From Planctomycetota bacterium (GTDB lineage Bacteria; Planctomycetota; UBA1135; UBA2386): 32,380 bases of DNA. Both the position numbers and the translations under genes were made by a program. The notes beneath the pieces were generated by a model. The model did not search any database. It was not told the DNA's origin and saw nothing but the letters and a program-made list of their open reading frames with translations. The DNA is taken from assembly GCA_947455805.1 (NCBI GenBank), contig CANGSN010000003.1, positions 1-32,380 on the forward strand, given 5' to 3'. Shown one piece after another: positions 5,565-15,998 of the stretch (its first letter is position 1; every line of letters starts with the position of its first letter).

Positions 5565-6106
5565 CGTTCTCGCCTCCGTTCGATGCAGCTCCGCAGCACA
5601 GCACGCAGGCGCTGCAGCAGCGTGCGCACGCCGTGTTCGCCGAGGCCGAGCTCGGCGCCGAGTTCGGCACGTCCGAGGCCATCGCGGTAGGTCCGCTCCA
5701 ACGCGATCCGCGAACGCTCCGGCAGTTCGCCAAGGCAGCGGTCGAGCGCCGCCAGCCAGCCGGCACCGTCGAGGTCGCCGCGCCTCAGCAGATCGCGCTG
5801 CCAGGCCTGTTCCGCAGCTTCCGCGTGCAGGGCAGCACGACGTCGCTCGCCGCGCTGCTCGCGCAGCCACAGGTGCTTCGCCGTCTGCCGCAGGAACGCC
5901 GCCGCCTCCGCACCGCTCCACGCGAGCACACCGCGCTGCAGCGCCACCACCAGGGCATCCTGCGCGATCGCCTCGGCTTGCTGGCCCCGGCAACCGAGCA
6001 CGTGCAGGAAGCGCCACACGGCGGCCTGATGGCCACGGACGAAGGCCGCGACGTGCTCGTCGCGATCGGTGGCTGGTTGCGTCGGCGGTTCGCTCAAGCG
6101 GGTCAC
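5561..6106 (-). CDS. ECF-type RNA polymerase sigma factor
   Basis: Sigma2-like (AAVWRFLHVLGCRGQQAEAIAQDALVVALQRG) and sigma4-like HTH (LPERSRIALERTYRDGLGRAELGAELGLGEHGVRTLLQRLRAVLRSCI). ORF opens to 6214 but that start overlaps the upstream gene by 52 bp; GTG at 6106 (VTRLSEPPTQ...) is a likely start. Confidence 0.8.
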   Translation of the reverse strand: MTRLSEPPTQPATDRDEHVAAFVRGHQAAVWRFLHVLGCRGQQAEAIAQDALVVALQRGVLAWSGAEAAAFLRQTAKHLWLREQRGERRRAALHAEAAEQAWQRDLLRRGDLDGAGWLAALDRCLGELPERSRIALERTYRDGLGRAELGAELGLGEHGVRTLLQRLRAVLRSCIERRRER

Positions 6107-7372: not shown

Positions 7373-7906
7373 GTGAACGCGACCCCGCCGAAGCCCCCGC
7401 CCGACGCACCGCTCGACCCCGACAGCGTGCAGGCGGCGCTCAAGCAGCGGCGGCCGTTCCGTTCGCGCCGGCAGGAGACGTTCCTGTGCCTGCTGCTGAC
7501 CGCGGAAGCGACGCGCTGGCCGCTGCTCGACCTGCTCGCCGGCCACGACGAGCTGACGCCGCAGCAATACAACGTGCTGCGCATCCTGCGCGGGGCCGGC
7601 GCCGACGGGTTGCCGACGCTCGAGATCGGCACGCGCATGATCGAACGCACGCCCGGCGTCACGCGGCTGATCGACCGCATGGAGAAGAAGGCGCTGGTGA
7701 CGCGCCAACGCGACCGCGGCGACCGCCGGCAGGTGATCTGCCGCATCACCGAACGCGGCCTCGCCCTGCTGAAGAAGCTCGACAAGCCGATCGACGGGCT
7801 CGAGGACGCAGCGATGGCGGCGCTGAGCGACGCCGAGGTCGAAGCCCTGCTGCCGCTGCTGAACAAGGTGCGGTTGCAGCTGACGCGAGGTCGCGCCCGT
7901 GGCTGA
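7373..7906 (+). CDS. MarR-family transcriptional regulator
   Basis: LTPQQYNVLRILRGAGADGLPTLEIGTRMIERTPGVTRLIDRMEKKALVTRQRDRGDRRQVICRITERG is a canonical MarR wHTH with a DRGDRRQV wing. Alternative in-frame ATGs at 7334 and 7343; GTG 7373 preferred from the promoter layout. Confidence 0.85.
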   Translation: MNATPPKPPPDAPLDPDSVQAALKQRRPFRSRRQETFLCLLLTAEATRWPLLDLLAGHDELTPQQYNVLRILRGAGADGLPTLEIGTRMIERTPGVTRLIDRMEKKALVTRQRDRGDRRQVICRITERGLALLKKLDKPIDGLEDAAMAALSDAEVEALLPLLNKVRLQLTRGRARG

Positions 7907-8816
7907 ACGCACCGACGCCGGCCTCGATCGACGCGCCTTCGTGCGCACTTCGCTCGGCGCCCTCGCGGCGGCGAGCTGTTCGCCGACACCGCCGATCACC
8001 GCTCCGACGCCCGCTCCCGAATCCGCGATGCCCGACGCAATGACGGCGACCATGCCGGTCGTGTTCGTGTCCCACGGCGCTCCGACGATGGCGCTCGATC
8101 GCGAGGCCGGCGCCGACTTCGCCCGCATGGCACAGGCACTGCCGAAGCCGCGCGCGGTGCTCGTCGTGTCCGCGCACTGGCTCGACGCCCCGGCGACGAT
8201 CGGCACGCGCAGTCGCCGCGAACTGCTGTACGACTTCTCCGGCTTCCCGGCGGAGCTCTACCGCGTGCGCTACGAAGCGCCCGCCGCCGCCGACGTCGCC
8301 GACGAACTGCAGCGCGCGGTGCCGTCGCTGCAGCGCGCCGACGAACGGCCGTGGGACCACGGCGTCTGGGTGCCGCTGGTGCACATGTTCCCCCGCGCCT
8401 CTGTGCCGGTGCTGCAGGTGTCGGTGCCGTACCGCTGGTCGCCGCGGCAACTGTTCGAGCTCGGGCGTTCGCTGGCACCGCTGCGGCAGCAAGGCGTGCT
8501 TGTGCTCGGCAGCGGCGGCATGGTGCACAACCTCGGCCGCCTCGACTGGAAGGGCGGCTCGGTGCCACCGGCGTGGGCCGCGAACTTCGAGGGCTGGGTG
8601 CGCGAACGGCTGCGCACCGGCGACCTGGACGGCCTGCTCGCCTACCGCGAGAAGGCGCCCGACCTGCAGCTCGCGCATCCGACCGACGACCACTTCCTGC
8701 CGCTGCTGGTCGCCGCCGGTGCTGCGGCGGGCGCGGGTGCTTCGGCACCGGTGACGTTCCCGATCGAAGGCTTCGAGTTCGGCTCGCTGAGCCGGCTAGC
8801 GGTCCGCTTCGGTTGA
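7899..8816 (+). CDS. Class III extradiol (LigB/4,5-DOPA-type) dioxygenase with putative Tat/lipoprotein signal
   Basis: VSHGAPTMALD, VSAHW, DHGVWVPLVHMFP and GSGGMVHNLGRLDW motifs; N-terminus DRRAFVRTSLGALAAASCS. GTG start overlaps the marR end by 8 bp. Confidence 0.85.
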   Translation: MAERTDAGLDRRAFVRTSLGALAAASCSPTPPITAPTPAPESAMPDAMTATMPVVFVSHGAPTMALDREAGADFARMAQALPKPRAVLVVSAHWLDAPATIGTRSRRELLYDFSGFPAELYRVRYEAPAAADVADELQRAVPSLQRADERPWDHGVWVPLVHMFPRASVPVLQVSVPYRWSPRQLFELGRSLAPLRQQGVLVLGSGGMVHNLGRLDWKGGSVPPAWAANFEGWVRERLRTGDLDGLLAYREKAPDLQLAHPTDDHFLPLLVAAGAAAGAGASAPVTFPIEGFEFGSLSRLAVRFG

Positions 8817-8830
8817 CGCCGGCGCACGGC
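8799..8830 (+). repeat. Direct repeat copy A (3' end of dioxygenase gene plus flank)
   Basis: gcggtccgcttcggttgacgccggcgcacggc; 30/32 identical to 10646-10677 (20 bp exact, 2 mismatches, 10 bp exact). Confidence 0.9.
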
Positions 8831-8884
8831 AGCACCTTTCGCCCAGCACGCTGGTCGCGACTGGTCGGTCGCTCGCAGCGTCGT

Positions 8885-8896
8885 TAGCCTTCGGCG
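8885..8896 (+). promoter_or_regulatory. Candidate -10 element of the ATPase cassette, leaderless spacing
   Basis: TAGCCT (8885-8890), N6, ATG at 8897; weak -35 TGGTCG at 8862-8867. Confidence 0.35.
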
Positions 8897-10039
8897 ATGC
8901 AGATTCGCCGCCTCCGACTCGAGAACTGGAAGAACTTCCGGTCGGTCGACGTGGCCTTGTCGTCGCGCGTCTTCCTGGTCGGCCCGAACGCCGCGGGAAA
9001 GTCGAATCTGCTCGACGCGGTGCGGTTCCTCGGCGACCTGGCGCGTCCCGGCGCCGGCGGTCTGCAGGCCGCAGTCGCCAACGAGCGGCGCCAAGGCATC
9101 AGCCAGATCCGTTCGCTGCACGCGCGAGCACGCAGCGCCATCGTCGTCGAGGTCGAGATCGGCGACGCCGAGACCACCAACTGGACCTATCGCCTCGAGA
9201 TCGCCGGGGGCAAGCAAGGCGCCGTGGTCGCTCGTGAGCGGGTGGAGCACGACGGCACCACGATGCTCGATCGTCCGAACGCGAACGATCGCGACGACGC
9301 TGCCCTGCTGGGCCAGACGCACCTCGAGCAGTTGAGCGCCAACGGCAGGTTCCGGCCGCTGGCCGAGTTCCTGGCCCGCATCAGCTACCTGCACTTGGTG
9401 CCGCAGCTGCTGCGCGAACCGCAGCGCTTCGATCTGATCGGCAGCGATCCGCTCGGGTCCGATTTCCTGCGCCGCGTGGCCAACACGCCGACCAAGACCC
9501 GCGAATCGCGGCTGCGCGCCATCGAGAAGGCGATGCGTGTCGCAGTCCCGAGCCTGGCCCAGCTCGAGCAGATCCACGACAAGGCGGGCGTTCCCCATCT
9601 GCGTGGACGCTTCGAGCACTGGCGCCCGAACGCCGGCTGGCAGGACGAACGGCAGTTCTCGGACGGCACGCTGCGGCTGATCGCACTGCTGTGGATCCTG
9701 ATGGAGGACCAGGCACCGCTGCTGCTGGAGGAACCGGAACTGTCGCTGAACGGCGCCATCGTGCGCGAGATCCCGCGCATGCTCCACGCGGCGACGCGCA
9801 AGCGACCGCGGCAGATCCTCGTCAGCACCCACAGCGGCGACCTGCTCGCCGATCGCGGCATCGCCCTCGAGGAGATCCTGATGGTGACGCCAGTGCGCCA
9901 AGGCTCGAAGGTCGAGGTCGCCGCCAACCGCAAGGACGTGCGGGCCCTGCTCGAGGCCGGAGTCTCGCCTGCCGAAGCCGTGCTGCCGCACACGGAACCG
10001 GGCGCCATGAAGCAGCAGCCGCTGCCGTTCACGGCCTGA
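8897..10039 (+). CDS. AAA/ABC-type ATPase of the OLD/RecF/AAA_15-AAA_21 group
   Basis: 380 aa; MQIRRLRLENWKNFRSVDV N-terminus, Walker A GPNAAGKS, signature-like FSDGTLRLIAL, Walker B PLLLLEEPELSL, switch His LVSTHSGDLL. Confidence 0.9.
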   Translation: MQIRRLRLENWKNFRSVDVALSSRVFLVGPNAAGKSNLLDAVRFLGDLARPGAGGLQAAVANERRQGISQIRSLHARARSAIVVEVEIGDAETTNWTYRLEIAGGKQGAVVARERVEHDGTTMLDRPNANDRDDAALLGQTHLEQLSANGRFRPLAEFLARISYLHLVPQLLREPQRFDLIGSDPLGSDFLRRVANTPTKTRESRLRAIEKAMRVAVPSLAQLEQIHDKAGVPHLRGRFEHWRPNAGWQDERQFSDGTLRLIALLWILMEDQAPLLLEEPELSLNGAIVREIPRMLHAATRKRPRQILVSTHSGDLLADRGIALEEILMVTPVRQGSKVEVAANRKDVRALLEAGVSPAEAVLPHTEPGAMKQQPLPFTA

Positions 10040-10040
10040 G

Positions 10041-10616
10041 ATGGCGATCTGGACCCTGGCTGTCGAAGGCCCGTCGGACGAGGCCGTGGTCGCCGCAGTG
10101 CTGCGCGCGAACGGACACGACGTGGGAGTGGTGCACGGCAAGCGCGGCAAGCACCACCTCGACGGCAACCTGCGCGGTTATGCGCTCGCCGCGATGCACG
10201 CCCCGTGGCTCATCGTGCGCGACCTCGACCAGGACGCGGCCTGCGCGGCCGAGCTGCTGGCGGCGAAGCAACCCGGGGGACACCCAGGCTGCGTGCGCAT
10301 CGCCGTTCGCGCCATCGAAGCCTGGCTGCTCGCCGACCCCGCGAGCGCCCAATGGCTCGGTGTCGCCGCTTCCTTGCTGCCGCGGGATGTCGAGAGTCTG
10401 GAGGATCCGAAGGATGCCCTGGTCAACCTCGCCCGCCGCTCCCGTTCGGCGACGATCAAGGCGGACATCGTGCCTACCCTCAGCCGCTCGATCGGGCCGG
10501 GCTACGTGGACCAAGTGCGCACGTTCTGTGCTTCGCGTTGGCGGCCCGACGTCGCCGCTCGGCGGAGCGAGAGCCTGTCGCGCCTGATCCGCCACGTCCG
10601 GAGCCGGCAGTCGTGA
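10041..10616 (+). CDS. DUF4276-like / Toprim-fold-like protein paired with the ATPase
   Basis: 191 aa; VEGPSDEAVVAAVL (Toprim-type Glu motif), IVRDLDQDA (DxD), AIEAWLLAD. ATG begins 1 nt after the ATPase stop. Confidence 0.75.
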   Translation: MAIWTLAVEGPSDEAVVAAVLRANGHDVGVVHGKRGKHHLDGNLRGYALAAMHAPWLIVRDLDQDAACAAELLAAKQPGGHPGCVRIAVRAIEAWLLADPASAQWLGVAASLLPRDVESLEDPKDALVNLARRSRSATIKADIVPTLSRSIGPGYVDQVRTFCASRWRPDVAARRSESLSRLIRHVRSRQS

Positions 10617-10645
10617 CTGGCTAGGGCCGGCGCGACGGCTCGCTC

Positions 10646-10677
10646 GCGGTCCGCTTCGGTTGACGGGGGCGCACGGC
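10646..10677 (+). repeat. Direct repeat copy B; residual 3' end of a dioxygenase gene
   Basis: gcggtccgcttcggttgacgggggcgcacggc. Upstream context ggctcgctcgcggtccgcttcggttga reads GSLAVRFG*, compared with GSLSRLAVRFG* at the dioxygenase end. Confidence 0.9.
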
Positions 10678-10692
10678 CGATAGCACCGCGGC

Positions 10693-11217
10693 ATGCGCAT
10701 CCACACCGCCCTGCTCTCGTCCTCGCTGCTGGCCATGCTCACGTCGTGCGCCGGCACTCCCGCCAACGACGACGTGAACATGCCGTTCGGCGCCGCCCCG
10801 ATGGGCGAGGTCGCGACGGCGCAACCGGCGAGCCCGTGCCTCGTGATGTCGCCGCAGACGATGCCGCTGCACTGGCACGACCGCGACGGTTCGGAGTGGG
10901 ACGGCGAACTCGAGATCGTCTGCGAGACCGACACCGCGCACGAGCAGATGGCCTGCGCCTGCATGATCGCGCGCTGGCCGCACGCGATCGAGCAGTGCCA
11001 GAACCTCGCCGAGCAGGCGATGATGGAGAGCGCCGCCGACGTCCAGCACATGACCGAGCACCTGCAGAAGACGCTCGACGAGGCGCTGTTCCCGTGCGAG
11101 ACAATGGGCAACGACCAGAAGCCGGTCGGCCGCGTGCGCGGTCTCAACTGGAAGGTGCTGCGCAAGCGCCGCAGCGGTCACACGTTCGACTACCAGCCCT
11201 TGCTGCGCCGCAACTGA
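10693..11217 (+). CDS. Putative lipoprotein of unknown function
   Basis: 174 aa with lipobox signal MRIHTALLSSSLLAMLTSC|AGTP; Cys-containing and Met-rich mature part. Confidence 0.7.
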   Translation: MRIHTALLSSSLLAMLTSCAGTPANDDVNMPFGAAPMGEVATAQPASPCLVMSPQTMPLHWHDRDGSEWDGELEIVCETDTAHEQMACACMIARWPHAIEQCQNLAEQAMMESAADVQHMTEHLQKTLDEALFPCETMGNDQKPVGRVRGLNWKVLRKRRSGHTFDYQPLLRRN

Positions 11218-11714
11218 GCGATGTGCGCCACGTGGTGGCTGCCGTGCCACGCGTAGAGCGCCACCAGGTCGTCGAGCGTCATCGCACCGCGTTCGCTGTG
11301 CACGCACGTCTTCGCGAACGCAGCAACCGGCAGCGTGCGCAGGCAGTGCACCCAGCGCTCGTGGATCGCCTGCACCAGCAGCAGCGACGTGCCGATCGGG
11401 CCGTTGGCGTCGGCGAGCCTGGCCCACTCGTTCTCGTCGTAGGCCTTGATCGGCGGCGGCGTCTTCTCGGTGATCGTCAGCTTGTGCCGCACGTACGCGT
11501 TGACGTGGCTGTCGGCGATGTGGTGCACGACCTGACGCAGCGTCCAGCCGCCGTCGCGGTAGGGCGTGTCGAGCTGCGCCTGGTCGAGGCCGCGCACGAC
11601 GTCGTGCAGCGCGTGCGGGATGCCGGCGATCGTGCTGATCGCCTGCGCGCGCGCGGCCGGCGTCAGCGTGCCCGGCAGTTCGATCTTGCCGATCGGGTAG
11701 CGCGGGTCGCTCAC
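11190..11714 (-). CDS. DinB/YfiT-like putative metal-dependent hydrolase (bacillithiol transferase-like)
   Basis: PYRDGGWTLRQVVHHIADSHVNAYVRHKL...ALYAWHGSHHVAHIAQL with three-His metal pattern. GTG start 11714 overlaps the upstream stop (GTGA). 3' end overlaps the convergent gene by 28 bp. Confidence 0.85.
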   Translation of the reverse strand: MSDPRYPIGKIELPGTLTPAARAQAISTIAGIPHALHDVVRGLDQAQLDTPYRDGGWTLRQVVHHIADSHVNAYVRHKLTITEKTPPPIKAYDENEWARLADANGPIGTSLLLVQAIHERWVHCLRTLPVAAFAKTCVHSERGAMTLDDLVALYAWHGSHHVAHIAQLRRSKGW

Positions 11715-12238
11715 GACTTCTTCTCCTCGACCTTCTGCGGCTCGACCACGACGAGTTCCGCGCCCTGATCGACGGTGCCGCCCTTCTGCGCCGTGACCTT
11801 GCGCACGACACCGGCGACGCCGGCCGTGAGCTTGTGCTCCATCTTCATCGCCGAGACGACGACCAGCGTCTGCCTGGCTTCGACGACGTCGCCCGGCTTG
11901 CACGCGACCTCGAGCACGGTGCCGGTCATCGGCGCGCGCACGACGCCGTCGCCGCCCGCAGCCCCACCACCGCGCCGCGCCGCCGGCGCTTCGAGCGTCC
12001 ACGTGCGGCCGTCGACGCGCACCATGTAGCCCTTCGCCAGCGACGCGCCGTAGGCGACGAACGCGCGGTCCGCACCTTCGCCGAGCGACTGCAGCTTCAC
12101 GCCGCCGTCGCCGAGCGCCTTCGCTTCGTACTCGTGCACGGTGTCGCCGATGCGCACGCGCCAGCGATCGCCCTCGAGGAACTCGGCGGTGACGGCGACG
12201 GTCTTGCCGTCGCGAACGAACTCGCGGGTGATCTTCAT
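11711..12238 (-). CDS. Biotin/lipoyl-attachment (BCCP-like) carboxylase subunit
   Basis: Biotinylation motif VVSAMKMEHKL within VRAPMTGTVLEVACKPGDVVEARQTL...VDQGAELVVV. Confidence 0.9.
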   Translation of the reverse strand: MKITREFVRDGKTVAVTAEFLEGDRWRVRIGDTVHEYEAKALGDGGVKLQSLGEGADRAFVAYGASLAKGYMVRVDGRTWTLEAPAARRGGGAAGGDGVVRAPMTGTVLEVACKPGDVVEARQTLVVVSAMKMEHKLTAGVAGVVRKVTAQKGGTVDQGAELVVVEPQKVEEKKS

Positions 12239-14879: not shown

Positions 14880-15998
14880 ATGATCACGACCAACCCATTC
14901 CAGGAACGCTCGCCGAGGCACTGCCGTGTCTTCGCCGCGCTCGCCCTGGCTGCACTGACGAGCTGCGCAGCGCCCGACCAGGCCGCGACGCCGACCCTGA
15001 CTTCCTCTGCACCGCCCCCGCGACTGCGCTTCGAGACCGTTCGCTCGATCCTGCACGACAGCAAGGGCAACCTCTGGTTCGGCAGCTGGAACGAAGGCGT
15101 CGCGCGCTACGACGGCACGAGCGTGACCTACCTGACGACGAAGGACGGGCTGTGCCACGACCAGATCCGTTCCATCTACGAAGACAAGAACGGCGTCGTC
15201 TGGTTCGAAGGCGGTGCAGGCCTCTCCGGCTTCGACGGCAGCAAGCTCATCGCCCCAGGATCACGCGACTACGCAGCGAAGCAGCGCTGGGCGCTCGGCG
15301 ACGGCGACCTGTGGTTCAAGGACGACGGTGAGATGGGCGCCAACGCGCAGGAAGGCCAACCGGGCGTCTATCGCTACGACGGCACGACCTTCACCTACCA
15401 CGCCTATCCAGTGCCGGTCGAACCGACGCGGAACTCCGCCTATGCGACGACCGGCTTCGCGCGCGGCAAAGGCGGCCGGGTGTGGTTCGCGACCTATGGC
15501 GCCGTCTTCGGCTTCGACGGCACGGCGCTGACGACCCTCGACAACGAACGACTGCAGCGCACCGAAGCGAACGGCCGCATGCACTGCCGCTGCGTGTTCG
15601 AGGATCGCCGCGGCAATGTGTGGATCGGCAACAACGGCATCGGCGTGCTGCTCTGGGACGGCACGAACGTCACCGACTTCACCCAGCTGCACGGACTCGG
15701 CAGGGCCGGCCGGCAAGCCGGACGGATGACGCCAATGCCCGGCGACCTGCTCGGTGACGGCCCGTCGATGCACCGCGTGTTCTCGATCGGCGAGGACCGC
15801 GACGGCAACGTCTGGTTCGGCACCGTCGAGAGTGGCGCATGGCGCTACGACGGCAAGAATGTTCGCCACTTCGGAGCTGCCGAGGGGCTGACGACCAACG
15901 ACGTGTTCGGCATCTATCGCGATCGCAACGACGACCTGTGGCTCGCGGGCCACGGCGTCTTCCGTTGGAACGGGACTTCGTTCGAACGCGTGTTCTGA
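14880..15998 (+). CDS. Lipoprotein with two-component-regulator-type beta-propeller (Reg_prop) repeats
   Basis: Lipobox RVFAALALAALTSC|AAP; repeats GNLWFGSWNEGVARYDGTSVTYLTTKDGL, GNVWIGNNGIGVLLWDGTNVTDFTQLHGL, GNVWFGTVESGAWRYDGKNVRHFGAAEGL. Confidence 0.85.
   Translation: MITTNPFQERSPRHCRVFAALALAALTSCAAPDQAATPTLTSSAPPPRLRFETVRSILHDSKGNLWFGSWNEGVARYDGTSVTYLTTKDGLCHDQIRSIYEDKNGVVWFEGGAGLSGFDGSKLIAPGSRDYAAKQRWALGDGDLWFKDDGEMGANAQEGQPGVYRYDGTTFTYHAYPVPVEPTRNSAYATTGFARGKGGRVWFATYGAVFGFDGTALTTLDNERLQRTEANGRMHCRCVFEDRRGNVWIGNNGIGVLLWDGTNVTDFTQLHGLGRAGRQAGRMTPMPGDLLGDGPSMHRVFSIGEDRDGNVWFGTVESGAWRYDGKNVRHFGAAEGLTTNDVFGIYRDRNDDLWLAGHGVFRWNGTSFERVF

What the first reader, a model, noticed from the sequence alone, without database searches (positions are those of the whole stretch)
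10637..10687. Residual dioxygenase 3' end downstream of the cassette (insertion footprint)
The sequence after the DUF4276-like gene, ggctcgctcgcggtccgcttcggttga, reads GSLAVRFG* and matches the true dioxygenase terminus GSLSRLAVRFG* at 8781-8816, with similarity continuing past the stop (ggcgcacggc, agcacc). Such regeneration of a gene's 3' end is typical of site-specific integration at gene termini, or of repeat-mediated capture. No integrase is present, so the mechanism is unclear. The footprint predicts the pre-insertion junction: dioxygenase stop followed within about 30 bp by the lipoprotein gene at 10693.
Basis: seen in the sequence. Interest (0 to 1): 0.65.

Follow-up and report, generated by a model that had tools for sequence, protein, structure and literature searches.

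The report
Scar of a defence-gene-pair insertion
A leftover copy of the last few dozen bases of a dioxygenase gene marks where a two-gene candidate anti-phage cassette (HEC-01) was inserted into a planctomycete chromosome; the scar is real and relatives without the cassette show the uninterrupted site, but it looks like an ordinary recombination accident rather than a new mobile-element mechanism.

Summary
The repeat is real. Window 8795-8836 (end of a LigB-type dioxygenase) recurs at 10642-10687: 36 nt at 92% identity, then a 4-nt gap and AGCACC; shuffle P about 6e-6; only two copies in the (56% complete) genome. The 1.8 kb between the copies holds exactly two genes, an AAA_21 ATPase and a DUF4276-like protein, which match PADLOC's candidate defence pair HEC-01A/HEC-01B strongly (8e-141, 1e-47). 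Three same-genus species have the dioxygenase next to the same lipoprotein and DinB genes with no cassette; in G003 the dioxygenase stop and the lipoprotein ATG are 30 nt apart, against 29 nt at the window's right copy, and the post-stop sequence matches the right copy, not the left. Site-specific integration is not supported: no recombinase, tRNA or terminal inverted repeat; G005 carries the same pair elsewhere with no repeat; only 3 of 32 HEC-01 loci have flanking repeats, all unrelated in sequence. Most likely: one-sided homologous or illegitimate recombination that left the recipient's old gene end behind. A known kind of event, well documented here; modest interest.

The parts
7899..8816 (+). 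LigB-family (4,5-DOPA extradiol-like) dioxygenase gene, intact; its end is the source of the repeat
   Evidence: Pfam LigB E 2.3e-29; NCBIfam PRK10628 3.5e-57, below its curated cut-off
8795..8836 (+). Left copy of the repeat: last codons and stop of the dioxygenase plus about 20 nt after the stop
8837..10641 (+). Inserted segment between the two copies
   Evidence: absent in G003, G005 and G002 at the same place
8897..10039 (+). HEC-01A-like AAA_21 (SMC/OLD-like) ATPase
   Evidence: PADLOC HEC-01A PDLC04180 E 8.2e-141; Pfam AAA_21 1.7e-29
10041..10616 (+). HEC-01B-like protein with weak DUF4276 similarity; starts 1 nt after the ATPase stop
   Evidence: PADLOC HEC-01B PDLC04194 E 1.3e-47; DUF4276 E 0.0024, sub-threshold
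10642..10687 (+). Right copy of the repeat: orphan dioxygenase gene end, contiguous with the native upstream region of the lipoprotein gene
10693..11217 (+). Small lipoprotein-like gene, native right neighbour
   Evidence: same neighbour in G005, G002 and G003
11190..11716 (-). DinB_2-family gene, next native neighbour (5' end approximate)
   Evidence: Pfam DinB_2 1.8e-20; same order in G005, G002 and G003

Best explanation
Shown: the window carries a two-gene HEC-01 candidate defence cassette between a dioxygenase gene and a lipoprotein gene that are direct neighbours in relatives, and about 42-46 nt of target sequence (dioxygenase end plus the start of the intergenic region) now stands on both sides. 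Inferred: the cassette came in by recombination without its own recombinase. Most likely a linear donor fragment carrying a dioxygenase end plus the cassette paired by homology inside the dioxygenase, while its other end was joined illegitimately a few dozen nt before the recipient's old dioxygenase stop (homology-facilitated illegitimate recombination, HFIR). The old gene end stayed behind as an orphan in front of the lipoprotein gene. Both neighbours therefore kept their full coding sequence, and the lipoprotein gene kept its upstream box.
For: Repeat significant and unique in the genome. Empty sites in three same-genus species with the same gene order. G003's junction equals the left copy up to the stop and the right copy after it: the post-stop match to G003 is P 4.5e-4 for the right copy and 0.42 for the left; the gap is 30 against 29 nt. 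Across the family, the best non-self DNA match to the right junction is that G003 site. Complementary decay: the right copy has lost 9 nt of coding sequence, the left copy has lost the 4 nt CGAT of the lipoprotein gene's upstream box. No recombinase, tRNA or terminal inverted repeat. Differences between the copies suit two related alleles. HFIR is an established route (PMC3240628) and was proposed for cassette insertions that shift an old gene end downstream (PMC5361080).
Against: No donor carrying dioxygenase plus HEC-01 was found. The remnant is too short to show phylogenetically that the two copies come from different lineages; the dioxygenase tree places G000 with other-genus G008 (87/83), but the support is modest and the direction unresolved. 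Divergence after a simple duplication would look the same. Natural competence of this lineage is unknown.
Confidence: 0.6

Rival explanations
1. Target duplication by a staggered break: the cassette was joined into a double-strand break with long overhangs that were filled in, duplicating about 45-58 bp. The two copies were identical at first and decayed since.
For: The duplication ends near AGCACC on both sides and each copy decayed where it was no longer needed; the differences polarise as expected when G003 is used as outgroup.
Against: The length is far above transposon target duplications (general knowledge); there are no terminal inverted repeats and no transposase.
Confidence: 0.2
2. 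Site-specific (tyrosine recombinase, att-like) integration at the dioxygenase gene end, with the recombinase acting in trans or since lost.
For: Regeneration of a gene's end and a direct repeat of tens of bp are the usual signs of such integration; the genome does hold tyrosine recombinases on other contigs.
Against: No recombinase in the interval or on the contig; no tRNA target; the repeat is imperfect with indels; the relative's cassette lies at an unrelated site without repeats; 29 of 32 HEC-01 loci have no flanking repeat; no close ATPase relatives in phages or plasmids.
Confidence: 0.1
3. Assembly chimera: two strains' contigs joined at a dioxygenase end.
For: The source is a fragmented metagenome bin (479 contigs, 56% complete); the G003 and G002 contigs end inside the dioxygenase gene.
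Against: The copies share at most a 20-nt exact block, too short for usual assembly k-mers; cassette GC and GC3 match the neighbours; both flanks align to same-genus relatives.
Confidence: 0.05
4. Chance similarity or a functional intergenic motif unrelated to insertion.
For: GC-rich sequence raises background similarity; some chance hits of 20-30 nt occur in the family.
Against: P about 6e-6, unique in the genome, and contiguous similarity of the right junction to the G003 empty site.
Confidence: 0.02

Closest known systems
Homology-facilitated illegitimate recombination (S. pneumoniae, A. baylyi, P. stutzeri; rare in E. coli), and the proposed T6SS effector-immunity module displacement in V. 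cholerae
   Same: A cassette is placed after a conserved gene portion and the recipient's old gene end is pushed downstream as a remnant; no integrase is needed
   Different: Here the duplicated end is only about 25 nt of coding sequence; the anchor and the donor are not demonstrated
HEC-01 (Hma-embedded candidate 01, PADLOC-DB)
   Same: Both genes, same order, adjacent; E-values 8e-141 and 1e-47
   Different: The cassette stands alone between housekeeping-type genes, not inside an Hma or other defence island
Tyrosine-recombinase integration at gene ends (att duplication)
   Same: Direct repeat that regenerates a gene's end
   Different: No recombinase, imperfect repeat with indels, no shared site among related cassettes

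Membership tests
HEC-01 candidate defence pair | HEC-01A-type ATPase next to an HEC-01B-type protein in the same direction | tested here: met
   the same pair in about 30 further loci
HEC-01 candidate defence pair | Protects cells against phage | not testable with these tools
   needs a plaque assay; the literature library has no paper naming HEC-01 together with PADLOC
Site-specific integrative element at a gene end | Recombinase gene inside the element | tested here: not met
   the interval holds two genes, an ATPase and HEC-01B; no PF00589 match on the window's contig
Site-specific integrative element at a gene end | Same attachment core at independent insertions | tested here: not met
   32 HEC-01 loci: 3 with repeats, all of different sequence
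Transposon or insertion sequence | Terminal inverted repeats and a short target duplication | tested here: not met
   best inverted match at the ends is about 10-20 nt with gaps, low-scoring; repeat of 42-46 nt
Homology-facilitated illegitimate recombination product | Homologous anchor on one side, non-homologous joint on the other | tested here: inconclusive
   structure fits but no donor allele is known; dioxygenase tree suggestive only

The most novel reading that the evidence does not exclude
HEC-01 pairs are moved by an unrecognised mechanism that duplicates 45-90 nt of a neighbouring gene's end or start at the insertion point: three of 32 loci (window; L052 with a duplicated restriction-gene start; L043 with a 53-nt intergenic repeat) show direct repeats around the pair with no recombinase.
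Probability: 0.05. Interest if true: 0.6.

Novelty: new member of a known kind. Interest (0 to 1): 0.3.

Why it matters
It is a clear before-and-after case, with an empty site in sister species, of how a small defence cassette without mobility genes enters a chromosome at a gene boundary while leaving both neighbours intact. Such scars could be used to date and trace transfers of defence genes that no integrase explains. By itself it does not change the known picture.

Tried and rejected
Flanking-repeat test over 32 HEC-01 loci: not a general feature. L102's 19-nt repeat lies inside coding sequence and is taken as chance. G002's possible remnant near its lipoprotein gene (CTTCGGCTG) is not significant (P about 0.06-0.09). 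Terminal inverted repeats and terminator hairpins: none convincing. Compositional foreignness: GC and GC3 ordinary. Dioxygenase tree against biotin carboxylase tree: G008 intrudes next to G000, modest support, direction unresolved; the marker search behind it used a frame that was wrong over part of the gene, and the tree itself used the correct frame. HEC-01B as a TOPRIM nuclease: a good model (pLDDT 88) but no significant PDB match, so not claimed. A TAGC-N8-ATG start box is not enriched in the window. Literature on HEC-01 or DUF4276: nothing held.

Full report
OBSERVATION. The best alignment pairs window 8795-8836 with 10642-10687: 36 nt at 92% identity, extended through a 4-nt gap by AGCACC. 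It scores 58, against a mean of 25 and a maximum of 46 in 3000 shuffles (P about 6e-6). Of 1268 real segment pairs at the same spacing, only three reach 58, and two of these are flanks of other HEC-01 cassettes. In the own genome (3.29 Mb, 479 contigs, 56% complete) no third copy matches at E<=0.001. The five bases 10637-10641 belong to the repeat only if a 9-nt deletion is allowed.

WHAT LIES BETWEEN. The copies enclose two genes on the + strand, one nt apart: an AAA_21 ATPase (8897-10039) and a 191-aa protein (10041-10616). PADLOC models HEC-01A and HEC-01B match at 8e-141 and 1e-47. DUF4276 is only a sub-threshold Pfam match. HEC stands for Hma-embedded candidate; several HECs have shown antiviral activity in assays (PMC12988326), but nothing was found for HEC-01 itself. 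GC and third-position GC are close to the neighbours'. No recombinase was found in the interval, no tyrosine integrase on the contig, and no tRNA or Rfam family in the window.

EMPTY SITES. In three same-genus genomes the dioxygenase is followed directly by the lipoprotein gene and the DinB gene: G005 (147-nt spacer), G002 (326-nt spacer) and G003 (30-nt spacer). G003's junction is nearly the predicted one: stop, 30 nt, ATG, against stop, 29 nt, ATG at the window's right copy. Up to the stop, G003 aligns with the window's true dioxygenase end. After the stop it aligns with the right copy (P 4.5e-4) and not with the left (P 0.42). A DNA search of 34 family genomes with the right junction gives the G003 site as best non-self hit. 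So the right copy is the native junction, and the pre-insertion order is established as well as comparison allows.

IS IT A SITE-SPECIFIC SYSTEM? Probably not. G005 (named in GenBank as Planctomycetota bacterium Prado171, inferred from the identical 22255-base contig length) has an empty site here and a cassette 73% (ATPase) and 58% (HEC-01B) identical at another locus, between a divergent gene and a transporter-like gene, with no significant repeat. Of 32 HEC-01 loci from many phyla, three have significant flanking repeats: this one; L043 (53-nt intergenic repeat); and L052, where 88 nt of the start of a Res-like restriction gene stands on both sides. The three sequences are unrelated. The ATPase has no close relatives in the phage or plasmid collections. 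There are no convincing terminal inverted repeats.

HOW IT MOST LIKELY AROSE. Shown: insertion between native neighbours, with duplication of the gene end. Inferred: one-sided homologous pairing in the dioxygenase with a donor that already carried dioxygenase plus cassette, and an illegitimate joint just inside the recipient's old gene end. HFIR is documented in three competent species and, rarely, in E. coli (PMC3240628), and was proposed for the V. cholerae T6SS module insertions in which an old gene's 3' end is shifted back (PMC5361080). The alternative, break fill-in that duplicated about 45-58 bp, cannot be excluded. Each copy decayed where it had lost its use: the right copy lacks 9 nt of coding sequence, the left copy lacks the CGAT of the conserved GCCGATAG box before the lipoprotein gene. 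The dioxygenase tree places G000 beside G008 of another genus, unlike the biotin carboxylase tree, a hint of exchange at this gene that is too weak to lean on.

VERDICT. Observation confirmed. The insertion-footprint reading is supported by sister-species empty sites; the site-specific reading is not. Known kind of event, known candidate cassette, modest interest.

Noticed in passing
L052:3793-3880 and 5764-5851: Verrucomicrobial HEC-01 pair enclosed by an 85% identical 88-nt copy of the start of a Res-like gene. The upstream fragment runs on into what looks (from memory, not tested) like the end of the partner Mod gene, suggesting recombination between two Mod-Res operons.
   Followed up: partly
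L043:3542-3592 and 5868-5921: HEC-01 pair in a Desulfomonilaceae genome between two copies of a 53-nt, about 90% identical intergenic repeat, possibly a dispersed element.
   Followed up: partly
L102 (G141), reverse strand 7500-3500: HEC-01 pair starts overlapping the stop of a helicase-like gene (ATGA), as in a defence island.
   Followed up: no
L038, dioxygenase-lipoprotein spacer (G002): The 326-nt spacer at the same junction holds a short ORF (MDIDAISSASAAATQSSQSIAVLKMAMNAEKAAG...), possibly YjfB-like: the junction may be a variable spot in the genus.
   Followed up: partly
window 10676-10695 and the same place in G003, G002, G005: Conserved GCCGATAG box about 13-16 nt upstream of the lipoprotein ATG in four species, perhaps a -10 element of a leaderless transcript; a related TAGC-N8-ATG stands before the ATPase (8885-8899). 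Not enriched in the window as a whole.
   Followed up: partly
L112 / L033 (G019:C52): Apparently degraded HEC-01 pair (partial ATPase, in-frame TAG in the second gene) in a related genus.
   Followed up: no
L005 (G008): Dioxygenase of another genus groups next to the window's, although it lies in a different gene context: likely horizontal exchange of this gene.
   Followed up: partly
window 15096-15680: Several diverged 37-50-nt repeats reading ...YDGT.. / ..FDG.., resembling propeller-type protein repeats.
   Followed up: no
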